This document shows, one piece after another, positions 27,396-60,872 of a stretch of 64,000 bases of DNA. Numbering within the stretch: the stretch's first letter is position 1; every line of letters begins with the position of its first letter. The notes under the pieces are model-generated. The model was given only the letters and a program-made list of their open reading frames with translations. It had not been told where the DNA came from and made no database searches. Source of the DNA: Siphonodentalium dalli (Eukaryota > Mollusca > Scaphopoda > Gadilida > Siphonodentaliidae); the NCBI GenBank assembly GCA_032622095.1, contig CP136066.1, forward strand, positions 145,481,559 through 145,545,558, given 5' to 3'. Position numbers and translations under genes: made by a program.

Positions 27396-27537
27396 AATAT
27401 ATCAGAAGATAGTGGGTCTCTTTGGGTCCAATCGTAAAATTGGGCATAAGTGTATTTTGAGTATGTTAGTACTATAGTACTATATATTTGAGAATCGTTG
27501 ATAAAAATGGGCGTAAGTATATTTTCGATATGGGCGT

Positions 27538-27702
27538 GTCCAAAAACTTCCAAAATTTCAAAAACTTCAAAAAATTCAAAAACTTCAAAAAATTCTAAAA
27601 TTTCAAAAATTTCAAAAATTTCTAAAAATTCAAAAACTTCAAAAATTTCAAAAACTTCAAAAATTTCAAAAATTTCAAAAAAATTCAAAAATTTCAAAAA
27701 CT
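27538..27702 (+). repeat. TTCAAAAA array
   Basis: About 165 bp of TTCAAAAA-type words (TTCAAAAATTTCAAAAACTTC and variants), period 9-12. It occurs again at 29280-29360 in the same unit, at 35030-35195 and 36758-36840 in unit 2, inverted at 46655-46800, and as a related array at 53520-53700 and 60655-60790. The open frames that read through it as Lys/Ser/Phe repeats are products of the repeat. Confidence 0.85.
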
Positions 27703-28369
27703 TGATTCAGATTGGTCAGGATTGGTTAGGAATTTTATAACGTTCACAGTTTATCTTGTATGAATTCACGAATCTTGTATGAGTTCAGAAAATGCATTAT
27801 TTATATTGGACTGCTCAAGTGTAGCATGTGAGAGTAAAGCATATAATAAAAAAACAAACCTACACTTTTAGTAGAAACCTGTATTAACTCATTCATGACT
27901 ACAGGAGATTGTGAATTATTACCATTTTCTATCTCTTTTGTCACATATGAGATAATTGTGTTATCCACTCACAAGTCTAGGTATGTTACATGTTTTTTTC
28001 TTTATACATCAGTGTATACATCAGTGTTTAATGTCCATGTTTGACCAGATTTGGCATTAAATTTATTTCTTTAAAGTTATCCTTATTTGATGTTAATTAC
28101 ATAGAATACTGCATGGGCGATTCAGCTGCATTAAGAATACTTTCCCTTGTCCTAAAGAGGCACACACCAACATACAATGGCCCTAGCGTGTTTAGTGTTG
28201 CTGCAGTTCCTTATTATTGATTTCTTAGTGTTACAAAGCAGTACAAACTAGTAAAAATCTAATAAAAGGTGTGAAGGAAAAAAACTAACTATGTCACGGA
28301 AAAAATTGCTTTGGGCTTATTTTGACACCCACCACCCCCAGCATACGTGTCGGAAAAAAAATTCTAACA

Positions 28370-28393
28370 CCCCCCCCCCCCCCCCCCCCCCCC
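28370..28393. repeat. C24 homopolymer, variable between copies
   Basis: Twenty-four C here, eleven at 35862-35872 in unit 2, and about thirty G at the matching place in the inverted arm (47692-47721). The difference of 13 exactly accounts for the offset change between units 1 and 2. Such a tract is prone to slippage and sequencing error. Confidence 0.85.
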
Positions 28394-29233
28394 GGCCAAC
28401 CCGGAACTAATTGCAACTTTTGGTATACTTGATAACTGCATTTCTACTGCATTACAATATGTTTATTTTTATAGAAAAATCTAATTAGAAAAAAGTTGAT
28501 AAATTTGTGTTTCCATGGTAACGATGGCTAATAATCGGGTAATTTTACATTAAATTGTGTGTATCGTGAATAATTGAATAACTATACCTGAAAGTTTACA
28601 ATGGTTTATGGAAGCACATGCAATGGCCGACATATCCATGATCGCCTTGAAATGTCAAGGTCCACTTGTTCAAAACTGATTTCTACGATAGTGTTATCTC
28701 TCACTATATTACATTAAACTCAATCTAACGACGTCTATTAATTTTCACAGAAACAATAATAAATCGTTTTCCTCTATTGAAAAATACTTTTATGATCGAG
28801 TTCTTCCCCATTGATTAATATTGACATTGTATATTAGTTTGGAAAAGACGAATATTGATTTTTAAGTGACTTACTTTAAGTTGAAATTGACTTATTGGCT
28901 GCTTATCTGATATATAATAAATTTAATTAAATAAATAACAAGAAAATAAATACGCTCAATATGGGCCTATTTCAGCACCAGATGTACGCTCTTAATAGAT
29001 GTGTTTTCACTGTGACCCGTGCCACCCAACAGAATAACGGGTATAAGTCCACTATGGGTTTATATCCGAACGAAATAAGTCCAATATGAACCAATGCCAA
29101 TATTTAGGTCCAATATGAACCTATTTTCCCGAGGATATAAGAAGATAGTGGGTCTCTTTGGGTCCAATCGTAAAATTGGGCATAAGTGTATTTTGAGTAT
29201 GTTAGTACTATAGTACTATATATTTGAGAATCG

Positions 29234-29527
29234 TTGATAAAAATGGGCGTAAGTATATTTTCGATATGGGCGTGTCCAAAAAATTTCAAAAACTTCAAAA
29301 ATTTCAAAAACTTCAAAAATTTCAAAAATTTCAAAAAACTTCAAAAACTTCAAAAATTTCAATATAATGAAGATGACGAGCAACCAATTTTCGACTGGCC
29401 TGAGGCATTACGTTATGGAATGAATAACGACAGCGGATCAGAGAGCACATCAGAGAGTGGATCAGAGAGCGGATCAGACAATTGGTCTTCTGAAAGTTCA
29501 TATCGGGACATAGAAGCCGATTTTTGA
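29234..29527 (+). CDS. Hypothetical small frame: FK repeat plus acidic Ser-rich tail
   Basis: Not recognised. After the low-complexity FKN repeat the frame reads QYNEDDEQPIFDWPEALRYG, then a run of SGSES/SESGS words, and stops at TGA (29525-29527). The same frame stays open for another 55 codons after the stop (to 29692: TCSECHSYQH, then LEDWDLEIELMEEYTYLLDS, ending DDSVNWD). The matching frame in the inverted arm (46483-46857) has an extra T in the T-run just before the stop. Possible coding remnants are the acidic parts. The Phe/Lys part comes from the repeat. An identical copy lies at 36713-37006. Confidence 0.35.
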   Translation: MIKMGVSIFSIWACPKNFKNFKNFKNFKNFKNFKKLQKLQKFQYNEDDEQPIFDWPEALRYGMNNDSGSESTSESGSESGSDNWSSESSYRDIEADF

Positions 29528-29692
29528 AGTACTAGCTCACAATCATCTTTTACCTGTTCAGAATGTCACAGTTACCAACACCAGCTCGAGGATTGGGACC
29601 TGGAAATTGAACTTATGGAGGAGTACACATATCTGTTGGACAGTGCCTATTCATCCGAAGAAATGTCTGACGATTCTGTCAACTGGGATTAA
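29528..29692 (+). pseudogene. Hypothetical acidic frame ending DDSVNWD
   Basis: Continues the preceding frame beyond its TGA and has no early Met. It includes CSECHSYQH (a possible C-x2-C-H-x3-H cluster), two Leu/Glu-rich segments and YSSEEMSDDSVNWD before TAA. A shortened version of the end (YLLDSVYSSEDMSDSVNWN) occurs at about 30225-30280, and both recur in unit 2 and in the inverted arm. An AATAAA lies ~60 bp downstream of each. Repeated preservation of the end suggests it was once coding. Confidence 0.35.
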
Positions 29693-30642
29693 AAATTAAC
29701 ACTTTAAATATTGTATATCCTACCATATGTGAACTTGAATTATGTCATCACCAATAAATACATATATAATCGATTATCTTTTCAATAATAATATCTCGCT
29801 GGGTTCTATCGTGGTAAAAATCTTTTGTTTGACAAGAGATTTTCCACTCAATGTTTGTCACAGACCTACGTCATAATACTCCCCTCCCCTCCTCTCCTAT
29901 CCCAACCACCTTCACATCACTTACCCGCACCTATTCATGCGCGTACACAATGTGTACGTGTCGGCGCACAAGACATCCAAATAAGGAGTATTAGCTCATA
30001 GTAAAGCAACGCTCTTTATTCATCTTTCAGCATAAATTGCATCCGTGTATTATCGCGAATTATTGGAAGAGCGTACGTTTATAGAGTTATTGTTCTTAGA
30101 ACGAGAATCGTTAGTCGGTTATTTTAAAAAGCGTTGCTAAAAAAGGGGTCGAGGACCCCGCCCCCACCCTGTTTTAGGGAAGTTACTCGGATCTGTATTT
30201 TGAGTAACAGATGAATATTCCTACCTACTGGACAGTGTCTATTCATCCGAAGACATGTCTGATTCTGTCAACTGGAACTAGCATCAGTTATGACACTCTT
30301 ATGTTGTATATCCTACCATATGTGAACTTGAATTATGTCATCACCAATAAATACATGTATAATCGATTATCTTTTCAATAATAATATCTCTCTGGGTTCT
30401 ATCGTGGTAAAAATCTTTTGTTTGACAAGAGATTTTCCACTCAATGTTTGTCACAGACCTACGTCATAATACTCCCCTCCCCGACACCCCTACCCCAACC
30501 ACCTTCACATATCAACTCACTTACCCGCACCTATTCATGCACGTATATATTGTACAATGTGTACGTGTCTGAGCACAAGACATCCAAATAAGGAGTATTA
30601 CCTCATAGTAAAGCAATGCTCTTTATTCATCTTTCAACATAA

Positions 30643-30831
30643 ATGGTATCCGTGTATTATCGCGAATTATTGGAAGAGCGTACGTTTATAGAGTTATTGT
30701 TCTTAGAACGAGAATCGTTAGTCTTCTATCGTGGTAAAAATATTTTGTTTGGCAAGAGATTTTCCACAATAATCTCAGCTGCTTATCGCGTTAATGCTAA
30801 TACGTCACATAATCTTATCACACGTACATAA
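30643..30831 (+). CDS. Hypothetical 62-codon frame with VYYRELLEE
   Basis: Not recognised. It starts MVSVYYRELLEERTFIELLF, is Leu/Glu/Arg-rich, and follows a GCTCTTTATTCATC motif by about 25 bases. A second version upstream (about 30052-30140) has the same VYYRELLEE stretch without Met and ends GYFKKRC. Copies lie at 38122-38310 and 45188-45376 (inverted arm). The VYYRELLE word is also kept in the second, diverged palindrome at about 54028-54052. Conservation across two families is the only argument for coding. Confidence 0.35.
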   Translation: MVSVYYRELLEERTFIELLFLERESLVFYRGKNILFGKRFSTIISAAYRVNANTSHNLITRT

Positions 30832-30941
30832 TAGCAGCTTATCGAAATATGCATACATGCGCTCAAATAATATGTACACGCTGTAACACGCAACCCTTGA
30901 AGTTACTTTGATGTTATTGTTATTTTGAACAAACTGAAAAC

Positions 30942-31133
30942 ATGATGATGCAAGAAATTTTCTATTTGTTATGCTTATCGCTGTACCAATTGATTGTATG
31001 TAATCAACGACAAAATGACCAACACGCCGAGAATGATTCATACCATGCTGATGATAAACACTGGAATATATGTATTCATACTGATGGTGACATTGGCCAA
31101 GATGACAGCGACTCGGACTGGGATGAAAAATGA
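30942..31133 (+). CDS. Hypothetical 63-codon frame: hydrophobic N-terminus, His/Asp-rich tail
   Basis: Not recognised. It starts MMMQEIFYLLCLSLYQLIVC, which looks like a signal peptide or single membrane segment. It continues polar (NQRQNDQHAENDSYHADDKH, then WNICIHTD) and ends GQDDSDSDWDEK. Eight copies of this frame exist in the window (also 31460, 38421, 39923, 41736 on plus; 43274, 44559, 45077 on minus), and none has an internal stop. Each is preceded by TGATGTTATTGTTATTTTGAA. An AATAAA follows ~60 bases downstream in this form. Whether it is translated is unknown. A long antisense frame also exists (30805-31161). Confidence 0.45.
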   Translation: MMMQEIFYLLCLSLYQLIVCNQRQNDQHAENDSYHADDKHWNICIHTDGDIGQDDSDSDWDEK

Positions 31134-31459
31134 ACACTTTAAATATTGTATATCCTACCATATGTGAACTTGAATTATGTCATCACCAATAAATGCATGA
31201 ATAATCGATTATCTTTTCAATAATAATATCTTTCTGGGTTCTATCGTGGTAAAAATCTTTCTACAATTGATTGACAAGAGATTTTCCACAATAATCTCAG
31301 CTGCTTATCGCGTTAATGCTAATACGTCACATAATATCATGACACGTACATATTAGCAGCTTATCGAACTATGCATACATACGCTCAAATAATATGTACA
31401 CGCTGTAACACGCAACCCTTGAAGTTACTTTGATGTTATTGTTATTTTGAACTGAAAAC

Positions 31460-31675
31460 ATGATGATGCAAGAAATTATCAATTTGTTATGCTTATCGCT
31501 GTACCAATTGATTGTATGTAATCAACGACAAAATGATCAACACGCCGAGAATGATTCATACCATGTTGATGATAAACACTGGAATATATGCATTCATACT
31601 GATGGTGACATTGGCCAAGATGACAGCGACTCGGACCAGTCCATCAGACGCCATCCCGTCTATTCCATCATATAA
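31460..31675 (+). CDS. Hypothetical 71-codon frame, second form of the MMMQEI family
   Basis: Same first ~58 residues as the frame at 30942 (Val for Ala and Asn for Tyr changes), but the end DSDWDEK is replaced by DSDQSIRRHPVYSII. It is followed about 60 bases later by AATAAAGAGCGTTTATT (31735-31751), which contains a potential poly(A) signal. Copies are at 39923-40138 and, inverted, 44344-44559. Confidence 0.4.
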   Translation: MMMQEIINLLCLSLYQLIVCNQRQNDQHAENDSYHVDDKHWNICIHTDGDIGQDDSDSDQSIRRHPVYSII

Positions 31676-32372
31676 TTGTCTCCACAATGTTTTACCTGAA
31701 ATAATTTGACGTCATTGCTCTTACATAAATAATAAAGAGCGTTTATTCTTTACTTCTCTATCACGATGCAGTTATTGAGCATCGTGTATCGCTATTTCAC
31801 CAGAGGTCACACGTTAGACCGTGTACACGTATATACATACGTAACATCAGACTAAACAAAGCTGATATGTTTCGATTGTTTGCGATTGTGACTGTAAATA
31901 GGTCTATCGAGTATATGGCATATAGCGCCACTTACCCACACCTATTCGTGCGCGTACACATTGTACCTTGGTATGTCAATGGATTGCTGGAAATCAACAA
32001 AATGTTAAAGAAACACAATAAACGCACTGGTGTTTGAATATTAAAGGAACACAATGCACTCTAAAGGGACACAAGACACTCATTATGAATGAATGTTTAC
32101 AATACAAGCGCAGTGGTTGAAAGTTAAAATGACACAGAACAATATTTAAAGTTCAAATTTTCGGGCTCTTAATGCGCCTTTTATCATTACGTATCGTTTC
32201 TCACTCTACAATTCCCAATAATCCACTCACTCTCCACCCGCTTATAGATATATAACGAAAACGAGAATATCATGTTGATGAAGTTTATTGAATATATCAG
32301 AAGATAGTGGGTCTCTTTGGGTCCAATCGTAAAATTGGGCATAAGTGTATTTTGAGTATGTTAGTACTATAG

Positions 32373-33718
32373 TCTATCTATCTATCTATACTATATATTT
32401 TGAGACTTCGTATATATGTGTGTATGTGTGTGTGTGTGTACTTCATAGAATCCAAAACGCGTGTACAGATTGAGCTCAAACTTCCTATGTAAGTGTCAAA
32501 TCCCACCGACACGACCGTGGTCGCGGTTTAGATAAGCTCAGATCACCCGTTCTCCAATCTCAAATCACCGCAAAGGCACGGCGTGGGTTAATCAAGTGAT
32601 TATTTAATGAGCGTTTGTTTTTGACGCATCTCTATAAAGAGCGTCTGATTGCCATTCAACGTTATTTGCATCTGCAGAGAGATATACGGAACATACATTA
32701 AATTTAAAAAACATTTGTTTCTGACCAACCCTGCGAGCACAAATGGCGCGCTTTGTTTTTACAGTATATAGTTATATACCGAAATCATCCCAGATAATCA
32801 CGAATATAGCATCAGATTTCTCCCCAGATATATCGTTATAAAGCTACTGGAATCTGCCAATCTACGGGAAATTCCAGGGAATGCCGACTGAGCTCAAACT
32901 TGCTACCCACGGGAAGTGCCATATATATGAGTGTGTCCTTTATAGACTCGAACCGATTGAGCTCAAACTTGCTAAATAAGAAAATAGCCCCCAAGCCGTA
33001 AATATCAACAACAACGATATTGCTACCTACGGGGAGCAACGTTATTAGCATCTGCAGAATTAAGCAGAGAGAAAGTGCTTTCCTATTTTTAGAACGCAAC
33101 ACATGTTTACGTCGCGTTGGTGATTGAGGTTCACAACGGGGTTAATTGACTGTCCGCTCTTTGCGACGATGAGGTTCACGGCGGGGACTATTGACCAACA
33201 CTCACAGTTTCGTCTTTTGCATCAGATACCAACACCTCGACCGATCGGGACGAAACTTGGTACGTGAGTGTAGTTTGACCAGGTGGTCGTCGCTGTCGTA
33301 TTGGCGAGCCTGTGTGACGCCCGTGCAGCGCATGCGCAGACGAGATATCGGAAACGGGTGGAGCTATCGACTTGAAATTTGGTATGTGAATGTATCTTGC
33401 GCCGGGTACAAATTTTATCGGGTCGCCGAGCCCGTGCGACACCCGTGCAGCGCATGCGCAGACGAGATCTCGGAAACGGGTGGAGCTATCGACTTGAAAT
33501 TTGCTATGTGAATGTATCTTGCGCCGGGTACAAATTTTATCTGGTCGCCGAGTCCGTGCGACATCAGCTTCGCGCATGCGCAGACCAGATCTCGGAAACG
33601 GGTGGAGCTACCGGGTACAAATTTTTCTTATTGAAACGCGTGGAGCTAAAAATTAAAAACAAATATTAAAAAAATGTCATGTTTCGGACAAGCCGCCGGT
33701 GGCGGGCTAACCTGCTAG
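32373..33718 (+). mobile_element. Non-autonomous Helitron, copy 1
   Basis: Starts TCTATCTATC...ACTATATATTTTGAGAC and ends AAGCCGCCGGTGGCGGGCT, a short GC hairpin, followed ten bases later by CTAG, as expected for a Helitron 3' end (hairpin then CTRR). The next base is T. There is no terminal inverted repeat and no target duplication. The inside has 122-bp tandem units (starts at about 33341, 33463 and 33585) containing CGGAAACGGGTGGAGCTA. No helicase or Rep frame is present. The (TCTA)n at the start is a local expansion absent in copy 2. Confidence 0.82.
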
Positions 33719-34969
33719 TCTATACTATATATTTTGAGACTTCGTATATATGTGTGTATATATATATGTGTGTGTGTACTTCATAGAATCCAAAACGCGT
33801 GTACAGATTGAGATCAAATTTCGTATGTAAGTGTAAAATCCCACCGACACCGCCGTAGATGTGTTTTCGAGAAGCTCTGAGCACCCTTTATCCACTCCCA
33901 GTCATCGAAATCAGCTCAAACGGCACGGCCGGGGTTAATAACGTCATTATATATATATATGAAGTCAGAGTCTCCAAAGTTATACTGGAACAAACACGTG
34001 TTTACGTCGTCTTGGGGGTCCACGATGGGAGTCTGACTTCAATGCAATGTTATCGCTCGAAACACGTGTTTACTTCGTGTTGAGGTTCACGATGGGAGTC
34101 TGACAATTGTTATCGCTCGAAATAGTACATTAGGATGTTATCGCTCGAAACACGTGTTTACTTCGTGTTGAGGTTCACGATGGGAGTCTGACAATTGTTA
34201 TCGCTCGAAATAGTACAACGGCTGGACAGATTGAGCTCAAACTTCCCATCTAGAGGTAAAACTCACGTACGATGTCGTCCACGCGTTTTCCAGAAGCTCC
34301 GAGCACCCGTACTCCACTCCCAGTCATTAAAATCAGCTCAAACGGCACGGCCGGGGTTAATAACGTCATTATATATATATATGAAGTCAGAGTCTCCAGA
34401 GTTATACGGGAACAAACACGTGTTTACGTCGTCTTGGGGGTCCACGATGGGAGTCTGACTTCAATGCAATGTTATCGCTCGAAACACGTGTTTACTTCGT
34501 GTTGAGGTTCACGATGGGAGTCTGACAATTGTTATCGCTCGAAATAGTACATTAGGACGAGTACGAAATGCATTTATCTCGATTAAAAAGGCAGATCTCG
34601 GAAACGGGTGGAGCTATCGACTTGAAAATTGCAATGTGAATGTATCTTGCGCCGGGTACAAATTTTATCGGGTCGGCGAGCCCATGCGACGCCCGTGCAG
34701 CGCATGCGCAGACGAGATATCGGAAACGGGTGGAGCTATCGACTTGAAATTTGCTATGTGAATGTATCTTGGGCCGGGTACAAATTTGATCGGGTCGCCG
34801 AGCCCGTGCGAAGCCAGCTTCGCGCATGCGCAGACCAGATCTCGGAAACGGGTGGAGCTACCGGGTACAATTTTTTCTTATTGAAACGCGTGGAGCTAAA
34901 AATTAAAAAAAAATATATATATAAATGTCATGTTTCGGACAAGCCGCCGGTGGCGGGCTAACCTGCTAG
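33719..34969 (+). mobile_element. Non-autonomous Helitron, copy 2, head-to-tail with copy 1
   Basis: Starts TCTATACTATATATTTTGAG directly after the CTAG of copy 1 and ends with the same hairpin and CTAG at 34966-34969. It is 1251 bp. It contains a duplicated block (CGAAACACGTGTTTAC(T/G)TCG...GATGGGAGTCTGAC, up to five times between about 33990 and 34530) and two to three of the ~120-bp GGGTGGAGCTATCGACTTG units. Host sequence resumes exactly at 34970, equivalent to 27478 in the uninterrupted unit 1. Confidence 0.82.
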
Positions 34970-37900
34970 TACTATATATTTGAGAATCGTTGATAAAAAT
35001 GGGCGTAAGTATATTTTCGATATGGGCGTGTCCAAAAACTTCCAAAATTTCAAAAACTTCAAAAAATTCAAAAACTTCAAAAAATTCTAAAATTTCAAAA
35101 ATTTCAAAAATTTCTAAAAATTCAAAAACTTCAAAAATTTCAAAAACTTCAAAAATTTCAAAAATTTCAAAAAAATTCAAAAATTTCAAAAACTTGATTC
35201 AGATTGGTCAGGATTGGTTAGGAATTTTATAACGTTCACAGTTTATCTTGTATGAATTCACGAATCTTGTATGAGTTCAGAAAATGCATTATTTATATTG
35301 GACTGCTCAAGTGTAGCATGTGAGAGTAAAGCATATAATAAAAAAACAAACCTACACTTTTAGTAGAAACCTGTATTAACTCATTCATGACTACAGGAGA
35401 TTGTGAATTATTACCATTTTCTATCTCTTTTGTCACATATGAGATAATTGTGTTATCCACTCACAAGTCTAGGTATGTTACATGTTTTTTTCTTTATACA
35501 TCAGTGTATACATCAGTGTTTAATGTCCATGTTTGACCAGATTTGGCATTAAATTTATTTCTTTAAAGTTATCCTTATTTGATGTTAATTACATAGAATA
35601 CTGCATGGGCGATTCAGCTGCATTAAGAATACTTTCCCTTGTCCTAAAGAGGCACACACCAACATACAATGGCCCTAGCGTGTTTAGTGTTGCTGCAGTT
35701 CCTTATTATTGATTTCTTAGTGTTACAAAGCAGTACAAACTAGTAAAAATCTAATAAAAGGTGTGAAGGAAAAAAACTAACTATGTCACGGAAAAAATTG
35801 CTTTGGGCTTATTTTGACACCCACCACCCCCAGCATACGTGTCGGAAAAAAAATTCTAACACCCCCCCCCCCGGCCAACCCGGAACTAATTGCAACTTTT
35901 GGTATACTTGATAACTGCATTTCTACTGCATTACAATATGTTTATTTTTATAGAAAAATCTAATTAGAAAAAAGTTGATAAATTTGTGTTTCCATGGTAA
36001 CGATGGCTAATAATCGGGTAATTTTACATTAAATTGTGTGTATCGTGAATAATTGAATAACTATACCTGAAAGTTTACAATGGTTTATGGAAGCACATGC
36101 AATGGCCGACATATCCATGATCGCCTTGAAATGTCAAGGTCCACTTGTTCAAAACTGATTTCTACGATAGTGTTATCTCTCACTATATTACATTAAACTC
36201 AATCTAACGACGTCTATTAATTTTCACAGAAACAATAATAAATCGTTTTCCTCTATTGAAAAATACTTTTATGATCGAGTTCTTCCCCATTGATTAATAT
36301 TGACATTGTATATTAGTTTGGAAAAGACGAATATTGATTTTTAAGTGACTTACTTTAAGTTGAAATTGACTTATTGGCTGCTTATCTGATATATAATAAA
36401 TTTAATTAAATAAATAACAAGAAAATAAATACGCTCAATATGGGCCTATTTCAGCACCAGATGTACGCTCTTAATAGATGTGTTTTCACTGTGACCCGTG
36501 CCACCCAACAGAATAACGGGTATAAGTCCACTATGGGTTTATATCCGAACGAAATAAGTCCAATATGAACCAATGCCAATATTTAGGTCCAATATGAACC
36601 TATTTTCCCGAGGATATAAGAAGATAGTGGGTCTCTTTGGGTCCAATCGTAAAATTGGGCATAAGTGTATTTTGAGTATGTTAGTACTATAGTACTATAT
36701 ATTTGAGAATCGTTGATAAAAATGGGCGTAAGTATATTTTCGATATGGGCGTGTCCAAAAAATTTCAAAAACTTCAAAAATTTCAAAAACTTCAAAAATT
36801 TCAAAAATTTCAAAAAACTTCAAAAACTTCAAAAATTTCAATATAATGAAGATGACGAGCAACCAATTTTCGACTGGCCTGAGGCATTACGTTATGGAAT
36901 GAATAACGACAGCGGATCAGAGAGCACATCAGAGAGTGGATCAGAGAGCGGATCAGACAATTGGTCTTCTGAAAGTTCATATCGGGACATAGAAGCCGAT
37001 TTTTGAAGTACTAGCTCACAATCATCTTTTACCTGTTCAGAATGTCACAGTTACCAACACCAGCTCGAGGATTGGGACCTGGAAATTGAACTTATGGAGG
37101 AGTACACATATCTGTTGGACAGTGCCTATTCATCCGAAGAAATGTCTGACGATTCTGTCAACTGGGATTAAAAATTAACACTTTAAATATTGTATATCCT
37201 ACCATATGTGAACTTGAATTATGTCATCACCAATAAATACATATATAATCGATTATCTTTTCAATAATAATATCTCGCTGGGTTCTATCGTGGTAAAAAT
37301 CTTTTGTTTGACAAGAGATTTTCCACTCAATGTTTGTCACAGACCTACGTCATAATACTCCCCTCCCCTCCTCTCCTATCCCAACCACCTTCACATCACT
37401 TACCCGCACCTATTCATGCGCGTACACAATGTGTACGTGTCGGCGCACAAGACATCCAAATAAGGAGTATTAGCTCATAGTAAAGCAACGCTCTTTATTC
37501 ATCTTTCAGCATAAATTGCATCCGTGTATTATCGCGAATTATTGGAAGAGCGTACGTTTATAGAGTTATTGTTCTTAGAACGAGAATCGTTAGTCGGTTA
37601 TTTTAAAAAGCGTTGCTAAAAAAGGGGTCGAGGACCCCGCCCCCACCCTGTTTTAGGGAAGTTACTCGGATCTGTATTTTGAGTAACAGATGAATATTCC
37701 TACCTACTGGACAGTGTCTATTCATCCGAAGACATGTCTGATTCTGTCAACTGGAACTAGCATCAGTTATGACACTCTTATGTTGTATATCCTACCATAT
37801 GTGAACTTGAATTATGTCATCACCAATAAATACATGTATAATCGATTATCTTTTCAATAATAATATCTCTCTGGGTTCTATCGTGGTAAAAATCTTTTGT

Positions 37901-38822
37901 TTGACAAGAGATTTTCCACTCAATGTTTGTCACAGACCTACGTCATAATACTCCCCTCCCCGACACCCCTACCCCAACCACCTTCACATATCAACTCACT
38001 TACCCGCACCTATTCATGCACGTATATATTGTACAATGTGTACGTGTCTGAGCACAAGACATCCAAATAAGGAGTATTACCTCATAGTAAAGCAATGCTC
38101 TTTATTCATCTTTCAACATAAATGGTATCCGTGTATTATCGCGAATTATTGGAAGAGCGTACGTTTATAGAGTTATTGTTCTTAGAACGAGAATCGTTAG
38201 TCTTCTATCGTGGTAAAAATATTTTGTTTGGCAAGAGATTTTCCACAATAATCTCAGCTGCTTATCGCGTTAATGCTAATACGTCACATAATCTTATCAC
38301 ACGTACATAATAGCAGCTTATCGAAATATGCATACATGCGCTCAAATAATATGTACACGCTGTAACACGCAACCCTTGAAGTTACTTTGATGTTATTGTT
38401 ATTTTGAACAAACTGAAAACATGATGATGCAAGAAATTTTCTATTTGTTATGCTTATCGCTGTACCAATTGATTGTATGTAATCAACGACAAAATGACCA
38501 ACACGCCGAGAATGATTCATACCATGCTGATGATAAACACTGGAATATATGTATTCATACTGATGGTGACATTGGCCAAGATGACAGCGACTCGGACTGG
38601 GATGAAAAATGAACACTTTAAATATTGTATATCCTACCATATGTGAACTTGAATTATGTCATCACCAATAAATGCATGAATAATCGATTATCTTTTCAAT
38701 AATAATATCTTTCTGGGTTCTATCGTGGTAAAAATCTTTCTACAATTGATTGACAAGAGATTTTCCACAATAATCTCAGCTGCTTATCGCGTTAATGCTA
38801 ATACGTCACATAATATCATGAC

Positions 38823-41113: not shown

Positions 41114-41244
41114 TCCGTGTTTGGTCAGTTTGACCATTTTCTTCATGATCATGTTATGTGTGGGTGATGTTTTCATTCGATGCTGATATTCTATTAATCG
41201 TTCTTAACTTTTGAGAAAGAGGAACAACAACGCCGATGATGACG

Positions 41245-41438: not shown

Positions 41439-41529
41439 GGGCAAATAACATGACACCGCCGTTGCCGCCGCCGCCGCAGTAAAATAACATGACATGTGGT
41501 ACATAATACAATTTTTTTTATTATATTAA

Positions 41530-41691: not shown

Positions 41692-41735
41692 GACTCTGAG
41701 TTACTTTGATGTTATTGTTATTTTGAACTGTAAAC

Positions 41736-43274: not shown

Positions 43275-43318
43275 GTTTTCAGTTCAAAATAACAATAACA
43301 TCAAAGTAACTCCGAGTC

Positions 43319-47689: not shown

Positions 47690-47722
<33 letters not shown>

Positions 47723-51665: not shown

Positions 51666-53450
51666 TAATATGTGACCCCGAAACACGTGGTCAAACGGAG
51701 GGTCTTTGACAGAATTGACCCTACCGCAATTAGCTGTGTGAGCCAATGAGATAATTGCATTATACAGTCTGGAGCAATGGTCGCTTCTGCGAACAGGCGG
51801 TTAGACAAAAAGACTCATTGTACCGGCTTACTCTATGTCGCTTTGATTTTGTTTTGTATAAAAGAGTATTGGTTTCAATTAAGTTGACACAATATAATAA
51901 TATAACAGTAACAGAATCCGAAAGCTTCGCCCTATGGGCTTTTTGGATTAGTAAATTATGAAATGTCACGCTGAGCCAGAGAGATGACAAATGGAAATAT
52001 GATGAGGGGATTATGCAGGGCTAGATAAGCTTATTAGTTAAAACTATCAAATCAAACTATGTACACATTTGAGATAATGGACCACATAGTGTTATAATCT
52101 CCAAGGGATTATTTGTTGGGGAAAGAGGGACACTAAAATGGCCAAAGTATATGACAGCACCTGTTAAATTCACCTGTTGTCGATTAATACAGGTTGATTA
52201 GGGCGCCTCTTCCTGGTAGCTTTCGGATTTGTGATGGTTAGATTTGGTACATTATACAGCATTTATTGGTATATTTTGTGAATAAATGGTATTCATGGCA
52301 TTTATACGTGGACTTACATACACAAACATTATGACAGACCAATGGAATATTAGGGAACTGTGATATGAAAACTAATTTCTCAATATACTGAAACATGTTT
52401 GTTCTATACGCGTAATGTGCCAATTATGAAGATTATTAATTGTTATTATAACATTTTATTTTTTTTAATTTAAATGCCTTTATTAATTCCTTAGATATAT
52501 AAGTCACGTTTTTACATAGCCCATACACACCCACGTGGCAGGGATAAGGGCGTTCTTTTTGTCTGAAATAAAAGGATTATTATATATTTGTACTGATGTT
52601 GTTCCACAACGTCCTTCTTGGTAATAGGGTGGTCTGCTCTACGTCATTGTGGGAAAATTATTGCAGGTTACAACACACAGAGGTTCCATACATACGGCAA
52701 ACAGTCCCTATATTATTCTAGGACATATATAAATACTATATAGCAATATATGCCGTATGTATTGGAACCTATGTATATGGCATTGCCCCCACTTTCTGTA
52801 TAGGCGTGGTATTTTCAAATTCTAAATTAGTGACTAAGGAGTTAATAAAGGAAAAACAAATATCAGATGCTTTGGTTTATCGGGAAGGATGGTGGGCTGC
52901 TACGTACGTACAGATAGATAGTTTAGTCAAAGAGGTTGAAGGCGGTCGATGACAAAACCATCTCCATATATTATCAATACGTTCACGTTCTTAAGTCCAG
53001 TATAGGATCCAATATTGCCCATCTATTAGAATATGTATCATTATCCAGAAAAAAACAATCAGTTATCCAGAAAAAAACAATCAATTATGACATGGAACAC
53101 TTTTTGATACCAGTATGGTGCATATTCGAATAAGTACAAAAAACTGACTACAACGGATGAAAACATACAAGTCCTCGAATTTTTATCGAAATAGGGAAAT
53201 TGTATGGTACACCATCGATAAATTGATAGATCGTGCGTCTATTGTGAAGAGATATATTATAATACCATTGAATATTTATTATGTGTTACATATCCAGGTT
53301 GACAAGAACAGTGAATATCCGAAATTATCGAACAATTTATCTCAAAATCGACGCCATGTGCAGGTTCATTTTTCATCATGCTTCGGTGGTAATTTGCCCC
53401 AATAAAGAGCTTGTCGTCGCAAATAAACATTGAAACTGAATGTATGTAGC
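51666..53450. other. Non-coding stretch with a small hairpin
   Basis: Nothing gene-like recognised. At 52681-52770 a ~90-bp inverted repeat begins AGGTTCCATACATACGGCA, and its right arm is the inverse with one inserted base. This is a possible miniature TIR element. A short tandem repeat (CAGTTATCCAGAAAAAAACAAT) occurs twice near 53040-53080. Confidence 0.55.
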
Positions 53451-56400
53451 CTAGAAGAATAGGCGTCTCGTTGCCTTCACATCTAAAAATAGAATCTTTG
53501 GGGTCTAAAATTGGTTGTACTAAAATATTCCCAAAATTTCAAAAACCCAAAAAATATCAAAACCCCAAAACAAATTTCAAAACTTCCAAAAATTATTTTT
53601 TCCAAAAAATTTCAAAATCCCAAAAAATTTTAAAACCCCAAAATTTCAAAAGAAAAAATTTCAAAACCCTCAAAATTATTTCTCTAAAAAAAGTGTAAAT
53701 AAAAAATTTATAACGAGTTTTCGGTTTCTGATAATCTCGATATTAAAAAAATGTCGAATGTTAAATTATTTGCGCGTAATATATTTCGTTATTTTTTTTT
53801 GTTCAACCAATGTTTCAATGTATTTATTAATCGATGTTTAGAAAATAGCTTTATTGGACATTGTGACCATCGATATGAATGCATACATTCCAGTGTTTTA
53901 TCGGACGCAGTTCATATAATTGTCATACCTGAAAATAGACACCATTACTTTTACATAAATAATAAAGAGCGTTTATTCTTTACACTCTCTCTATCCCAGA
54001 TGAAGTTATTGAGTATATGACAGGTGTGTATTATCGTGAATTATTGGAAGTATTGAGATGTACTATGTTGAATCACTAACGGTCGAAAATTGTAATGTGA
54101 AATTACAACCCTCCAGAATGAATTGTCATATTCGCTGTACACGCAATCACACACGCGACATTGGTGGTAACAATGTGTCTTTCACACCTTTGCTTTACCA
54201 AATGAATTATATTATTTCCCCGGTCACAGTTATATGCTATTCAGAAAACATATCGATTTAATGTCTGAACAAACGGGTTAGTATCAATTAAGGTTGATAA
54301 ACTGTGTCATTCACACGATAATTAGTTAGCCAAAACATGCATACATATTACGTCAGGTCGTGAGACACTCAATTATAGAAATTGCTTTGATGACATTGTT
54401 ATAACAACATTACGTAATAACCCCTTATCACTCCATTCACACTTACGATCATATGCCGAAAACTCCAGGTAGCACCGATGATGTAACATTATATCACTGC
54501 TATTGTACCAATGATAGGTTCAGACATGTTCGATGTTTAGAAATAGATATTAACAATTGTTAAATGTGCAGGTGTTCTCAGCGGGGGGAACACAGGGTTA
54601 CGTAATAATAACCAGTTAAACAACTAATGTTGCCTCGTCCGTACAAAACCAATTATCGGCCTATTCATACATTACGTTCATATATATAATCTTATATAAT
54701 GTTACGTCATCCCGGCTTGCATATGTTCGGGATTTTATGGTATAAAAATATAGATTACTAAGCTGTATTCCATATAGTGAATAGACGCCGTTGTAATCAC
54801 TACTCAGGACTTGTCGAAAAATGGCTGAAGAAATAATGACACCTCTGACTTTAATGTCTGAACAAACGGGTTAGTATCAATTAAGGTTGATAAACTGTGT
54901 CATTCACACGATAATTAGTTAGCCAAAACATGCATACGTCCAGGACACTCAATTATAGAAATTGCTTTGATGACATTGTTATAACAACATTACGTAATAA
55001 CCACTTATCGCCCCACATTCATACTTACGCTTTGGACATTTTATCAGTTTATCACGTGATCACTAAATGTGGCAATCGGGTATCCACCGATGCCTGCAAT
55101 ATATTATTTATAATAATTGGACTCATTGATCTCACGTGAATAATACTCTTAGTTGTTCCAATAAAATAGTTATCAAATTCGATCACCAATAGATTTGACT
55201 GTGGAATGTAATGACCTTTAACTTATTTATCGATCTAAAGGGACACTCATTATGAATGAATGTTAACAATACAAGCGCACGAACGAAGAGCGTTGAACAT
55301 ATACGAAATTACTACACGAATGAATTGAACCTTGAAATTTATATTTCACATCTTACCAACAACAGCTACAGACATAATCATAGTATTATACTGTCTTGCA
55401 TGTACACACGCTATGACATCATTAAAGGTGGACAATCCACTCACGGTGTGACAACAGATACGGACATAGGCATAGTGTTATACAGTCTTCTATGTACCCA
55501 CGCTATGACACCATTAACGTACATTGGATGTTAGGTCTATGACTCTTGAGTATGCACCAATCAATGAGCAAATGAGCAATAAAAATGAGCAAATGAGCAA
55601 AAAAATGAGCAAATGAGCAAGAAAATGAGCAAATGAGCAATAAAAATGAGCAAATGAGCAAAAAAATGAGCAAATGAGCAAGAAAATGAGCAAATGAGCA
55701 ATAAAAATGAGCAAATGAGCAAAAAAATGAGCAAATGAGCATAAAAATGAGCAAATGAGCAAGAAAATGAGCAAATGAGCAAGAAAATGAGCAAATGAGC
55801 AATAAAAATGAGCAAATGAGCAAAAAAATGAGCAAATGAGCATAAAAATGAGCAAATGAGCAAGAAAATGAGCAAATGAGCAAGAAAATGAGCAAATGAG
55901 CAATAAAAATGAGCAAATGAGCAAAAAAATTAGCAAATGAGCAAGAAAATGAGCAAATGAGCAATAAAAATGAGCAAATGAGCAAATAAATGAGTAAATG
56001 AGCAAAAAAATGAGCAATAAAATGAGCAAATGAGCAATAAAAATGAGCAAATGAGGAAAAAAATGGGCATACCTGTATGTAGGCCTACCAGTGGATGAAT
56101 AGTCTGCCGGAGAAGTACTGTGTAGACAGGTCTTGTCGGTAAGAGAGTCAGACGATAAGTGAAGGCTCGGCTATTAAAACATAGTAATGCGATAGCGAAC
56201 ATCAAACGAGTCTGCGCACGCATATCTGTCAAAGGATACAATGGCAGTCATTGGTCAATTTATCCCCGGTGTCAGCTCAGTACCCAATCGGGACGAAGCC
56301 GAAGGTCAACTCATTTTTTTTGCTCATTATAGTACGTCACTTGGACATTTTATCAGTTTATCACGTGATCACTAAATGTGGCAATCGGGTATCCACCGAT

Positions 56401-56843
56401 GCCTGCAATTTATTATTTATAATAATTGGACTCATTGATCTCACGTAAATAATACTCTTAGTTGTTCCAATAAAATAGTTATCAAATTCGATCACCAATA
56501 GATTTGACTGTGGAATATAATGACCTTTAACTTATTTATCGATCTATGTTAGAACATGGTCTTAACAAAAAACTTGACCATAACAAAAATTACCTTACAT
56601 TTATGCATGAATCTAATTAGACCATACGTAAATATTGTCAGCTTATCGTCTGATGAGCAAATCCGATGTTTATCAAAAATAGTGCAACTTCCAGTTGGTA
56701 ATTACTCTTACGAATGAAGAGCGTTGAACATATACGAAATTACTACACGAATGAACTGAAATTTATATTTTCACATCTTACCAACAACAGATACAGACAT
56801 AGTCATAGTGTTATACTATCTTACATGTACCCATGCTATGACA
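53451..56843 (+). repeat. Second palindrome, left arm (3.4 kb)
   Basis: Paired positions sum to about 114322 throughout (for example 53471 with 60853, 54058 with 60264, 55256 with 59066), so the arms are collinear and almost free of indels. Content from the outside: the CTAGAAGAATAGGCGTCTCG border, a TTCAAAA array (53530-53690), a region similar to the KHWN block of the first palindrome (53840-53930), AATAAAGAGCGTTTATT (53961-53977), and VYYRELLE (54028-54052). Then come two copies of a ~100-bp block (TGTCTGAACAAACGGGTTAG at about 54262 and 54855), a GAGCAA array (55560-56050) and CATGCTATGAC blocks. Confidence 0.92.
55563..56052. repeat. ATGAGCAA array, left arm
   Basis: About 490 bp of AAAATGAGCAAATGAGCAA units, period 20-22, with A-run length and AAG/AAT variants. 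Inverse copy at 58263-58760. Same word family as the GAGCAA array at the axis of the first palindrome. Long Leu/Ile/Cys/Ser/Phe frames across it in three frames are repeat products. Confidence 0.9.
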
Positions 56844-57478
56844 TCATTCGAAGGGGCAATACACTCAAAAAGTTAAAGTGACACGAAACAAGGGACGTGA
56901 TGTAATATTGGTGTTTGAATCTTAAAGGAACACAAGACACTCTAAAGGGACACTCATTATGAATGAATGTTAACAATACAAGCGCACGAATGAAGAGCGT
57001 TGAACATATACAAAATTACTACACGAATGAATTGAACCTTGAAATTTATATTTCACATCTTACCAACAACAGCTACATGCATTATCATAGGGTTATACTG
57101 TCTTGCATATACACACGCTATGACATCATTAAAGGCGGACAATCCACTCACGGTGTGACAACAGATACAGACATAGGCATAGTGTTATACAGTCTTCTAT
57201 GTACCAATGCTATGACATAATTAAAGGGGGATAATACACGCACGGTGTGGAATGTTAAAGTGACACGCGGTAAGGGACGTGATGTAATATTGGTGAAACC
57301 CCCTCCCCACTTATAGATATATAACGAAGACGAGAATAACATGTTGATGAAGTTTATTGAAATTTAATCATTGTCTGAATCTTCGACCGTTAGATTTACT
57401 TCTAAGAGTTTCTTGAATTTTCTCATCGCTTCATCTGCAGCCCATTCATTATTATATCCGTGTTTGGTCAGTTTGACC
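56844..57478. repeat. Second palindrome, spacer
   Basis: Not inverted-repeated. It contains a direct repeat of 55228-55500 (about 56940-57210: ACACTCTAAAGGGACACTCA through AGTCTTCTATGTACC). It also has two copies of AAAGTGACACG...AAGGGACGTGATGTAATATTGG (56875-56915 and 57255-57295). From 57305 on, a block matches the first palindrome near 43650-43745 (AACATGTTGATGAAGTTTAT, then CATTATTATATCCGTGTTTG). Confidence 0.8.
57364..57477 (-). CDS. Hypothetical acidic-tailed frame VKLTKHGYNN, longer form
   Basis: 37 codons open to the arm border: VKLTKHGYNNEWAADEAMRK, then FKKLLEVNLTVEDSDND and TAA, followed by AATAAA 7 bases later. It has no Met because the arm junction cuts off the start. The short form is at 43655-43726. 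Not recognised. The amphipathic helix (DEAMRKFKKLLE) followed by a short acidic end makes coding plausible. Confidence 0.4.
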   Translation of the reverse strand, partial: VKLTKHGYNNEWAADEAMRKFKKLLEVNLTVEDSDND

Positions 57479-60400
57479 CTTCATAGCATGGGTACATGTA
57501 AGATAGTATAACACTATGACTATGTCTGTATCTGTTGTTGGTAAGATGTGAAAATATAAATTTCAGTTCATTCGTGTAGTAATTTCGTATATGTTCAACG
57601 CTCTTCATTCGTAAGAGTAATTACCAACTGGAAGTTGTACTATTTTTGATAAACATCGGATTTGCTCATCAGACGATAAGCTGACAATATTTACGCATGG
57701 TCTAATTAGATTCATGCATAAATGTAAGGTAATTTTTGTTATGGTCAAGTTTTTTGTTAAGACCATGTTCTAACATAGATCGATAAATAAGTTAAAGGTC
57801 ATTATATTCCACAGTCAAATCTATTGGTGATCGAATTTGATAACTATTTTATTGGAACAACTAAGAGTATTATTTACGTGAGATCAATGAGTCCAATTAT
57901 TATAAATAATAAATTGCAGGCATCGGTGGATACCCGATTGCCACATTTAGTGATCACGTGATAAACTGATAAAATGTCCAAATGACGTACTATAATGAGC
58001 AAAAAAAATGAGTTGACCTTCGGCTTCGTCCCGATTGGGTACTGAGCTGACACCGGGGATAAATTGACCAATGACTGCCATTGTATCCTTTGACAGATAT
58101 GCGTGCGCAGACTCGTTTGATGTTCGCTATCGCATTACTATGTTTTAATAGCCGAGCCTTCACTTATCGTCTGACTCTCTTACCGACAAGACCTGTCTAC
58201 ACAGTACTTCTCCGGCAGACTATTCATCCACTGGTAGGCCTACATACAGGTATGCCCATTTTTTTCCTCATTTGCTCATTTGTATTGCTCATTTGCTCAT
58301 TTTATTGCTCATTTTTTTGCTCATTTGCTCATTTATTTGCTCATTTGCTCATTTTTATTGCTCATTTGCTCATTTTCTTGCTCATTTGCTAATTTTTTTG
58401 CTCATTTGCTCATTTTTATTGCTCATTTGCTCATTTTCTTGCTCATTTGCTCATTTTCTTGCTCATTTGCTCATTTTTATGCTCATTTGCTCATTTTTTT
58501 GCTCATTTGCTCATTTTTATTGCTCATTTGCTCATTTTCTTGCTCATTTGCTCATTTTCTTGCTCATTTGCTCATTTTTATGCTCATTTGCTCATTTTTT
58601 TGCTCATTTGCTCATTTTTATTGCTCATTTGCTCATTTTCTTGCTCATTTGCTCATTTTTTTGCTCATTTGCTCATTTTTATTGCTCATTTGCTCATTTT
58701 CTTGCTCATTTGCTCATTTTTTTGCTCATTTGCTCATTTTTATTGCTCATTTGCTCATTGATTGGTGCATACCCAAGAGTCATAGACCTAACATCCAATG
58801 TACGTTAATGGTGTCATAGCGTGGGTACATAGAAGACTGTATAACACTATGCCTATGTCCGTATCTGTTGTCACACCGTGAGTGGATTGTCCACCTTTAA
58901 TGATGTCATAGCGTGTGTACATGCAAGACAGTATAATACTATGATTATGTCTGTAGCTGTTGTTGGTAAGATGTGAAATATAAATTTCAAGGTTCAATTC
59001 ATTCGTGTAGTAATTTCGTATATGTTCAACGCTCTTCGTTCGTGCGCTTGTATTGTTAACATTCATTCATAATGAGTGTCCCTTTAGATCGATAAATAAG
59101 TTAAAGGTCATTACATTCCACAGTCAAATCTATTGGTGATCGAATTTGATAACTATTTTATTGGAATAACTAAGAGTATTATTCACGTGAGATCAATGAG
59201 TCCAATTATTATAAATAATATATTGCAGGCATCGGTGGATACCCGATTGCCACATTTAGTGATCACGTGATAAACTGATAAAATGTCCAAAGCGTAAGTA
59301 TGAATGTGGGGCGATAAGTGGTTATTACGTAATGTTGTTATAACAATGTCATCAAAGCAATTTCTATAATTGAGTGTCCTGGACATATGCATGTTTTGGC
59401 TAACTAATTATCGTGTGAATGACACAGTTTATCAACCTTAATTGATACTAACCCGTTTGTTCAGACATTAAAGTCAGAGGTGTCATTATTTCTTCAGCCA
59501 TTTTTCGACAAGTCCTGAGTAGTGATTACAACGGCGTCTATTCACTATATGGAATACAGCTTAGTAATCTATATTTTTATACCATAAAATCCCGAACATA
59601 TGCAAGCCGGGATGACGTAACATTATATAAGATTATATATATGAACGTAATGTATGAATAGGCCGATAATTGGTTTTGTACGGACGAGGCAACATTAGTT
59701 GTTTAACTGGTTATTATTACGTAACCCTGTGTTCCCCCCGCTGAGAACACCTGCACATTTAACAATTGTTAATATCTATTTCTAAACATCGAACATGTCT
59801 GAACCTATCATTGGTACAATAGCAGTGATATAATGTTACATCATCGGTGCTACCTGGAGTTTTCGGCATATGATCGTAAGTGTGAATGGAGTGATAAGGG
59901 GTTATTACGTAATGTTGTTATAACAATGTCATCAAAGCAATTTCTATAATTGAGTGTCTCACGACCTGACGTAATATGTATGCATGTTTTGGCTAACTAA
60001 TTATCGTGTGAATGACACAGTTTATCAACCTTAATTGATACTAACCCGTTTGTTCAGACATTAAATCGATATGTTTTCTGAATAGCATATAACTGTGACC
60101 GGGGAAATAATATAATTCATTTGGTAAAGCAAAGGTGTGAAAGACACATTGTTACCACCAATGTCGCGTGTGTGATTGCGTGTACAGCGAATATGACAAT
60201 TCATTCTGGAGGGTTGTAATTTCACATTACAATTTTCGACCGTTAGTGATTCAACATAGTACATCTCAATACTTCCAATAATTCACGATAATACACACCT
60301 GTCATATACTCAATAACTTCATCTGGGGTAGAGAGAGTGTAAAGAATAAACGCTCTTTATTATTTATGTAAAAGTAATGGTGTCTATTTTCAGGTATGAC

Positions 60401-60872
60401 AATTATATGAACTGCGTCCGATAAAACACTGGAATGTATGCATTCATATCGATGGTCACAATGTCCAATAAAGCTATTTTCTAAACATCGATTAATAAAT
60501 ACATTGAAACATTGGTTGAACAACAAAAAAATAACGAAAGATATTACGCGCAAATAATTTAACATTCGACATTTTTTAAATATCGAGATTATCAGAAACC
60601 GAAAACTCGTTATAAATTTTTTATTTACACTTTTTTTAGAGAAATAATTTTGAGGGTTTTGAAATTTTTTTCTTTTGAAATTTTGGGGTTTTAAATTTTT
60701 TTGGGATTTTGAAATTTTTTGGAAAAAATAATTTTTGGAAGTTTTGAATTTTTTTTTGGGGTTTTGATATTTTTTGGGTTTTTGAAATTTTGGGAATATT
60801 TTAGTACAACCAATTTTAGACCCCAAAGATTCTATTTTTAGATGTGAAGGCAACGAGACGCCTATTCTTCTT
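57479..60872 (-). repeat. Second palindrome, right arm (3.4 kb)
   Basis: Inverse of 53451-56843. Differences are few: mostly A-run lengths in the TTCAAAA array, a TGTATTGCTC variant near 58282, and isolated substitutions. The outer border CGAGACGCCTATTCTTCTTAG mirrors the left border. Confidence 0.92.
58263..58760. repeat. TTGCTCAT array, right arm
   Basis: Inverse of the array at 55563-56052, with essentially the same order of unit variants, so the two arrays have not been rearranged separately since the arms formed. Confidence 0.9.

What the first reader, a model, noticed from the sequence alone, without database searches (positions are those of the whole stretch)
27396..60872. Two related multi-kilobase palindromes: a candidate undescribed family of giant fold-back elements
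The first palindrome (about 35200-48379, axis 42517) and the second (53451-60872, axis about 57161) share, in diverged form, the same parts: a TTCAAAA-type array near the outer edge, a KHWN/CIH block, AATAAAGAGCGTTTATTCTTTAC followed by ATGAAGTTATTGAG, a VYYRELLE frame, the GGTGTTTGAAT-TTAAAGGAACACAA block, a GAGCAA array, and an inner VKLTKHGYNN...DSDND frame. Two independent palindromes with one parts list argue for a mobile or self-amplifying element rather than a chance inverted duplication. I recognise no transposase, integrase or polymerase in either.
Basis: partly seen in the sequence, partly recalled or inferred. Interest (0 to 1): 0.88.

Follow-up and report, generated by a model that had tools for sequence, protein, structure and literature searches.

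The report
Giant palindromic satellites of Maverick transposons
The two giant mirror-image stretches are copies of a mobile DNA parasite that borrows the ends, and very likely the copying and inserting enzymes, of virus-like Maverick (Polinton) elements in the same genome, and many other copies carry their own DNA-packaging-type ATPase gene in both halves.

Summary
Both palindromes are real mobile elements, ending in AGAAGA...TCTTCT and flanked by 6-bp target duplications (TAGCCT; TATATC). Of 38 elements examined, 33 have an exact 6-bp duplication, 4 need a 1- or 3-nt terminal extension, 1 has none. Palindrome 2 has the ends of Polinton/Maverick elements (734+729 such ends genome-wide, 28 in the reversed-pattern control); the 16-kb ones carry integrase and protein-primed DNA polymerase. 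Palindrome 1 has a related, diverged end. The palindromes are non-autonomous. One genomic copy (L039) is the left end of a Maverick duplicated head to head, with a 136-nt loop and 4-nt microhomology; palindrome 1 is the mirror duplication of a linear 5.6-kb satellite. This fits snap-back synthesis during protein-primed replication, as in defective viral genomes. Many relatives encode a zinc-finger protein with a packaging-type ATPase, 31% identical to the helper's, often in both arms; the window copies have lost it. Best reading: satellites of Mavericks, possibly redirecting packaging. Mobility and Maverick origin of the ends are strongly supported, snap-back well supported, packaging only inferred.

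The parts
53447..53452 (+). 6-bp target duplication TAGCCT, left of palindrome 2
53453..60871 (.). palindrome 2: complete non-autonomous palindromic element, 7419 bp
   Evidence: ends AGAAGAATAG...CTATTCTTCT and TSD; arms 99.5% identical
53453..54849 (+). left arm, outer part: Maverick right-end sequence (TIR plus about 300 bp beyond it, reaching the first 19 residues of the right-end open frame)
   Evidence: 88% to A1 14795-16202; tblastn
59473..60871 (-). the same Maverick right-end sequence in the right arm, mirrored
53533..53675 (+). subterminal TTCAAAA-type array, within the stretch that matches the Maverick TIR
55563..56069 (+). AATGAGCAA array, left arm
58253..58759 (-). the same array, right arm
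56075..57160 (+). inner arm core; full-length 99-100% matches at 40 scored places of 2202 candidates, the window's own included, many in opposite-strand pairs
56842..57480 (.). asymmetric spacer between the arms (639 nt)
57367..57543 (-). remnant of the C-terminal part (VKLTKHGYNN...DSDND) of a satellite zinc-finger protein
   Evidence: tblastn
60872..60877 (+). 6-bp target duplication TAGCCT, right of palindrome 2
27398..27403 (+). 6-bp target duplication TATATC, left of the outermost end of palindrome 1
27404..46941 (.). palindrome 1 between its outermost terminal repeats (19.5 kb, secondarily rearranged)
   Evidence: TIR starts at 27404, 29140, 32299, 36619 (+) and 46941 (-); TSD
36619..46941 (.). 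core palindrome 1, axis 42517/42518; both arms resemble an L040-like satellite, 1595-5564, mirrored
27702..29139 (.). mirror copy of right-hand flanking DNA inside the left arm; second copy at 35194-36618
   Evidence: inverted match to 46942-48380
46942..48380 (.). right-hand flank of palindrome 1 (begins with the TSD); its outer 650 nt are a repeat found elsewhere at 93-95%
42165..42861 (.). GAGCAA arrays meeting head to head at the axis of palindrome 1
41111..41212 (-). remnant of the zinc-finger protein's C-terminal part, left arm of palindrome 1
43649..43714 (+). remnant of the same protein, right arm of palindrome 1
46942..46947 (+). 6-bp target duplication TATATC, right of palindrome 1

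Best explanation
The palindromes are non-autonomous satellites of Polinton/Maverick elements. They carry the helper's terminal inverted repeats (palindrome 1 a diverged form), so the helper's protein-primed DNA polymerase and integrase can copy them and insert them with 6-bp target duplications. The palindrome arises when a strand displaced during replication folds back at a short inverted match and is copied to its own end (snap-back), giving two identical arms that each end in a working terminus. Linear satellites and, in one case, the helper itself have been palindromised in this way; repeated folding and copying keeps the arms of one copy alike while copies drift apart. Many copies encode a zinc-finger/packaging-type ATPase, often in each arm, which may favour packaging of satellite DNA into helper capsids. 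Shown by sequence: termini, TSDs, shared ends, helpers, turn-back junctions, intact genes. Inferred: dependence in trans, the snap-back step, packaging.
For: (1) TSDs and borders: 33 of 38 exact, 4 with a 1- or 3-nt terminal extension, 1 none; left and right flanks of different elements agree in 8 of 1406 combinations. (2) Outer arms of palindrome-2-type copies are 80-94% identical to Maverick ends (13 of 14; the other, L039, 97%). (3) Helpers: 10 of 47 TIR pairs are 16.06-16.56 kb apart. The one scanned with Pfam has rve+chromodomain integrase and DNA_pol_B_2 above cut-off, and an ATPase and an adenovirus-type protease by weaker matches. PolB hits fall inside two of the ten 16-kb intervals, the search scoring 69 of 1596 candidates; 40 of 40 scored integrase-region hits (485 candidates) are 99-100% identical. 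(4) Turn-backs: L039 = A2 216-4791 joined head to head to 4927-215, 97%, microhomology GGCG, 136-nt loop; of 40 scored places (937 candidates) only L039 spans the junction. Each arm of palindrome 1 matches the linear element L040 from 1595 to 5564. Both arms of palindrome 2 carry right-end-specific Maverick sequence. (5) The two ends of one copy are each other's nearest relative in 12 of 14 pal2-type non-autonomous elements, against 4 of 10 16-kb elements. (6) One extra AGA triplet at one end in 3 of 38 elements, as expected of a jump-back start at AGA-AGA (mechanism recalled from adenovirus). (7) ATPase: 150 of 150 scored hits (3071 candidates, best first) identical over 212 aa with no stop, 96 of them in 48 divergent pairs.
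Against: No replication intermediate, virion or transcript was seen. Arm identity alone could be kept by gene conversion. TIRs of 16-kb copies are also alike (98.5-99.7% in 8 of 10), so the arm contrast is modest. L039 is the one clear helper-derived junction; turn-backs of the other families are blurred by arrays and later change. Seven of 19 copies examined have inverted partners over only 10-72% of their length. L044 has no TSD. Selection on the ATPase rests on 11 synonymous and 17 non-synonymous changes among seven copies (one-sided p = 0.025), some pairs reach dN/dS 0.65 and one 1.61, L038's second arm and L044 contain stops, and the 150 identical hits are the best of 3071 candidates. For palindrome-1-type ends the likeness to A1/A2 ends is confined to the array (about 70-75%); no 16-kb helper with such ends was seen among the 22 places, and the M3 locus shares about 600 bp at 94% but its end was not located.
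Confidence: 0.8

Rival explanations
1. The palindromes were made or equalised after insertion: ordinary Maverick derivatives suffered inverted duplication in the chromosome, and gene conversion between arms keeps them alike.
For: Palindrome 1 shows such a secondary event: right-hand flanking DNA stands mirrored in the left arm. Arms of one copy are very alike.
Against: TSDs flank the whole palindrome with different DNA on either side in nearly all copies examined, so it was inserted as a unit. Inner-arm sequences recur in opposite-strand pairs at many sites. Arm identity differs between copies (96.2-99.9% in the 12 largely palindromic ones), as expected if arms drift after insertion.
Confidence: 0.1
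2. The palindromes formed by recombination or end joining between two opposite-facing element copies before integration, with no snap-back.
For: Any joining of two like ends before integration gives the same product; the L039 junction has only 4 nt of microhomology.
Against: A 136-nt loop with short microhomology is what intrastrand fold-back predicts; the likeness of the two ends of a copy (12 of 14) would have to arise anew for each copy. Palindromes from a linear satellite and from the helper point to a recurrent process.
Confidence: 0.2
3. A classical fold-back family (FB, Galileo, FARE type) moved by a cut-and-paste transposase, unrelated to Mavericks.
For: Long inverted repeats with internal tandem arrays, as in known fold-back elements (recalled).
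Against: Ends of the palindrome-2 type are 80-94% identical to those of elements with Maverick genes; TSDs are 6 bp, not the lengths recalled for those families; L039 carries a Maverick integrase, 99.5% to that of A1, in both arms.
Confidence: 0.03
4. Assembly artefact: fold-back reads or collapsed haplotypes.
For: Long palindromes are a known read artefact (recalled); no reads were available.
Against: The palindromes examined have different flanks left and right joined by a short TSD, and the family recurs at many loci with its own sizes and spacers.
Confidence: 0.02

Closest known systems
Polinton/Maverick self-synthesizing transposons (polintoviruses)
   Same: Long TIRs, 6-bp TSD, AG...CT termini; outer arms of the palindrome-2 type 80-94% identical to ends of 16-kb elements in this genome that carry integrase, protein-primed polymerase and weaker matches to ATPase and protease
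   Different: The palindromes lack polymerase, capsid, protease and, except L039, integrase; 4-12 kb; mirror-symmetric; many carry a different ATPase joined to zinc fingers
Palindromic or snap-back defective genomes of adenoviruses and of protein-primed linear plasmids (recalled; searches listed 0, 1 and 1 papers, neither title on this subject)
   Same: Head-to-head duplication of one genome end with both termini functional; protein priming at short terminal repeats
   Different: Here they are integrated, inherited and amplified in a genome, and many carry genes of their own
Capsid-parasitising satellites such as P4 and PICI of phages, and virophages (recalled)
   Same: Small element with the helper's recognition ends and a packaging-type gene of its own
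   Different: Packaging into helper particles not shown; the helper is an integrated Maverick; the element is a palindrome
Fold-back transposons FB, Galileo, FARE (recalled)
   Same: Very long inverted repeats containing tandem arrays
   Different: TSD length and source of ends differ; no transposase of that kind was seen

Membership tests
Polinton/Maverick (as non-autonomous member) | 6-bp target site duplication | tested here: met
   33 of 38 exact, 4 with terminal extension, 1 none; PMC12220804 gives 5-6 bp TSDs for Polinton-like viruses (passage); the 6-bp rule for Polintons is recalled
Polinton/Maverick (as non-autonomous member) | long terminal inverted repeats shared with autonomous elements | tested here: met
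   palindrome-2 type: 80-94% to A1/A2 ends over 0.4-1.4 kb in 13 of 14 copies, 97% over 4.7 kb in L039. Palindrome-1 type: only the array, about 70-75%
Polinton/Maverick (as non-autonomous member) | termini 5'-AG...CT-3' (recalled) | tested here: met
[quoted passage not shown]
   no polB hit of 60 aa or more at E 1e-6 in 19 copies; best polB hit in the window region E 0.37; present in the 16-kb elements
Polinton/Maverick (as autonomous member) | retroviral-type integrase | tested here: not met
   only L039 of 19 copies has it, in both arms
Polinton/Maverick (as autonomous member) | capsid, protease and packaging ATPase genes | tested here: not met
   no hit of 60 aa or more to the presumed capsid or the protease frame in 19 copies; all or part of a distant ATPase in 8 (L029-L031, L038, L041-L044), the helper's own in L039; none in the two window palindromes
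Fold-back transposon family (FB/Galileo/FARE) | 7-9-bp TSD (recalled) | tested here: not met
   6-bp TSD
Fold-back transposon family (FB/Galileo/FARE) | cut-and-paste transposase of the family (recalled) | not tested
   no search with those transposases was made; the ends belong to Mavericks
Snap-back defective genome | head-to-head duplication of one genome end with turn-back at short homology | tested here: met
   L039: 4 nt, 136-nt loop; palindrome 1 from an L040-like linear element, junction itself blurred by the GAGCAA array
Snap-back defective genome | hairpin or palindromic replication intermediate | not testable with these tools
   genome sequence only
Capsid-parasitising satellite | packaged in helper particles | not testable with these tools
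   only the gene is seen: Pox_A32 at 25.2 bits, cut-off 22.8

The most novel reading that the evidence does not exclude
A class of satellite in an animal-type genome: mirror-symmetric DNA elements that live on integrated Maverick viruses, are regenerated by snap-back replication in each cycle, and encode, often in both arms, a zinc-finger packaging ATPase of their own that steers helper capsids to satellite DNA, perhaps by recognising GAGCAA arrays; the P4/PICI way of life on a eukaryotic, integrated helper.
Probability: 0.35. Interest if true: 0.92.

Novelty: new variant of a known kind. Interest (0 to 1): 0.8.

Why it matters
Protein-primed replication of Polintons is, as far as I recall, inferred from their polymerase; integrated palindromes with a readable turn-back junction, and ends that slip by exactly one AGA triplet, would be traces of it in a genome. 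If the ATPase reading holds, Mavericks have parasites of their own, which bears on whether they make particles worth stealing. The case also gives one source of multi-kilobase palindromes in large genomes and a simple signature for annotators (AGAAGA ends, 6-bp TSD, mirror arms).

Tried and rejected
Rejected: independent fold-back family (Maverick ends found); assembly artefact (TSDs with different flanks); origin by host inverted duplication (inserted as units); second polymerase lineage as donor of the satellite ATPase (its own ATPase is only 28.7% identical). An 8-nt microhomology first read at the L039 junction was wrong: the exact match is 4 nt, GGCG. One search (PDB by sequence) gave two hits for the ATPase, at E 0.28 and 0.3, and (PHROGs) none. 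Structure prediction and fold search were not used. The host was not identified; a fibrinogen domain and non-LTR elements suggest an animal. Literature: searches, listings only (25 of 44 papers listed in 39, 12 of 83 in 76, otherwise all hits). I saw no title or start of abstract on palindromic Polintons or satellites of Mavericks; the library lacks most subscription journals, and the founding paper and a review that I asked for are not held. Passages, not whole texts, were seen of PMC4028283, PMC6431247, PMC2836005 and PMC12220804. The script missed the right end of A2; its TSD (ATTCTC both sides) is taken. Rows dropped: the five elements with palindrome-1-type ends, and the 300-bp end pieces L001-L020 (two of those ten elements are in as L027 and L039); the second arms of L031 and L038. 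The pairs were not tallied. The 11 copies L028-L038 were hand-picked from the 35 pairs under 10 kb's listed places, by ends and size.
Full report
What was checked. The window lies at G000:C6:145481559-145545558 in a 2.23-Gb genome of 9 contigs. Palindrome 2 has arms 53453-56841 and 57481-60871, 99.5% identical; the main segments of palindrome 1 are inverted over 35194-48380 with the axis at 42517/42518.

Borders. The outer arm of palindrome 2 (window 53380-54580) was sought in the whole genome (40 scored of 2380 candidates, the window's two arms included). Of 40 main rows, 30 begin at query base 69-74, the border of the palindrome, and 32 form 16 plus/minus pairs 5.7-16 kb apart; identities are 89-99% outside the query itself. 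The flanks of ten such pairs and of the window copy show ends AGAAGAATAG...CTATTCTTCT and 6-bp direct duplications. Over all elements examined, 38 including both window palindromes, 33 have an exact 6-bp TSD (32, and A2), 3 have one with an extra AGA at one end, 1 with an extra A, and L044 has none. Left and right flanks of different elements agree in 8 of 1406 combinations (this control allows no extension). Palindrome 1 uses a related end, AGAAGATAGTGGGTCTC, at 27404, 29140, 32299, 36619 (+) and 46941 (-); the outermost pair is flanked by TATATC. A longer form of this end occurs at only 11+11 places, control 0+0.

Whose ends. The pattern AGAAGAATAGGCGTCTCGTT (up to 3 mismatches) occurs 734+729 times against 15+13 for the reversed control. 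The 100 listed places give 47 plus/minus pairs: 36 of 3.9-11.6 kb, 10 of 16.06-16.56 kb and one of 20.6 kb. A 16.2-kb copy (A1), read in three separate pieces, has an integrase with rve and chromodomain and DNA_pol_B_2 above their cut-offs, an adenovirus-type protease just below (20.0 bits, cut-off 21.3), and an ATPase frame with P-loop whose Pfam matches, Pox_A32 among them, are all below cut-off. Its 386-aa frame is called capsid from its place and size only (recalled; no Pfam hit). DNA_pol_B_2 hits lie inside two of the ten 16-kb intervals. These are Polinton/Maverick elements; the gene set agrees with PMC4028283 (passages). They are young: the 40 scored hits of one integrase region are all 99-100% identical.

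What the palindromes are made of. Of 18 copies fetched whole plus palindrome 2, 12 of 19 have inverted partners over at least 85% of their length; of the 11 hand-picked by ends and size (L028-L038), 8 do. Outer arms of the palindrome-2 type are Maverick ends, 80-94%. L039 is the clearest case: both 4.7-kb arms are the left end of Maverick A2 at 97%, and each arm holds an integrase and an ATPase frame 99% identical to those of A1. The forward arm follows A2 to 4787, the reverse arm starts at 4927, sharing GGCG; of 40 scored places only L039 itself spans the junction. Palindrome 1 is explained in the same way: L040, a linear element of 5564 bp with TSD CCTAAG, has end repeats of 1.5-1.6 kb and a body (1594-4051) without an inverted partner beyond 44 nt. 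Each arm of palindrome 1 matches it in mirror image between 1595 and 5564, covering 3297 and 3111 nt at 89-90% in the chain, with further 96% segments. In palindrome 2 both arms carry right-end Maverick sequence about 300 bp beyond the TIR, down to the first residues of the right-end open frame.

Arms within and between copies. Using the outer 950 nt, the two ends of one element are each other's best match in 12 of 14 non-autonomous elements with palindrome-2-type ends (not L029, L033) and in 4 of 10 16-kb elements; but the ends of 16-kb elements are also alike, 98.5-99.7% in 8 of 10. The inner-arm core 56075-57160 matches 99-100% at all 40 scored places, the window's own included. So copies are recent, and the two arms of a copy share its history.

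The satellite's genes. Eight of the 19 copies (L029-L031, L038, L041-L044) hold all or part of an ATPase domain. The L030 protein matches Pox_A32 at 25.2 bits (cut-off 22.8) and has C2H2 fingers on either side, one class of them just under its cut-off (24.0, cut-off 25.2). Open frames are 518-595 aa in L030, L038 and L042. The domain is 30-31% identical to the ATPase frames of Mavericks A1 and A2. In the genome 150 of 150 scored hits (of 3071 candidates, best first) are identical over 212 aa without a stop, in open frames of 314-657 aa; 96 of the 150 stand in 48 divergent pairs, with one same-strand pair. Seven ATPase copies show 11 synonymous and 17 non-synonymous changes, fewer non-synonymous than neutral (p = 0.025): a weak sign of selection, with some pairs against it. 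L038's second arm and L044 contain stops. The window copies keep only C-terminal remnants. A GAGCAA array is present in ten of the 19 copies and sits at the axis in L042 as in palindrome 1.

How it works. Inferred: the helper polymerase starts on the terminal repeats by protein priming; a displaced or broken strand folds at a short inverted match and is copied back to its own terminus; the product has two good ends and is inserted by the helper integrase. The AGA-AGA terminus, with one extra triplet in 3 of 38 elements, suits a jump-back start as recalled for adenovirus. That palindromes exist both with the ATPase gene reading outward (L030, L031, L038) and inward (L042) suits folding at either end of a linear satellite such as L044, where one ATPase copy was found. 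Packaging by the satellite's ATPase is a proposal only.

Later damage to palindrome 1. Right-hand flank 46942-48380 reappears mirrored at 27702-29139 and 35194-36618, and 27475-31343 is directly repeated at 34967-38822: most simply (inference), repair of a broken left arm copied from the right arm and its flank, followed by a direct duplication.

Limits. One genome, no reads, host unnamed; best-candidate searches give lower bounds and favour close copies. A 16-kb helper with palindrome-1-type ends was not found, nor sought beyond. Literature was searched by words only, in an open-licence library.

Noticed in passing
G000:C2:199640860-199661413: A 20.6-kb interval bounded by one pair of palindrome-2-type ends holds five listed copies of the zinc-finger gene in the order -,+,+,-,+, as if two palindromes had joined or nested.
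   Followed up: no
G000:C8:142624500-142645500 (L064, L065): A second polymerase lineage (frames of about 1312-1330 aa) with integrase, capsid-frame, protease and ATPase homologues about 28-34% identical to those of the main Mavericks.
   Followed up: partly
window 1507-5088 (-), 16699-17481 (+): Reverse transcriptase frames of non-LTR type, the first with an endonuclease domain.
   Followed up: no
window 763-1332 (-): Weak match to a tyrosine recombinase (Phage_integrase, 20.7 bits, cut-off 27.1), perhaps a Crypton or DIRS relic.
   Followed up: no
window 62828-63565 (+): Fibrinogen C-terminal domain, E 4.6e-53, a likely host gene or exon.
   Followed up: no
window 25-515, 11183-11686, 51013-51514: A repeat of about 490 bp present three times in the window at 94-97%.
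   Followed up: no
window 32293-34966: Stretch between the direct duplicates of palindrome 1: 75 bp of the terminal repeat from 32299, then 122-bp and 88-bp tandem repeats.
   Followed up: partly
loci L001/L002, L056/L057, L058/L059: Element ends longer by exactly one AGA triplet, on one side only.
   Followed up: partly
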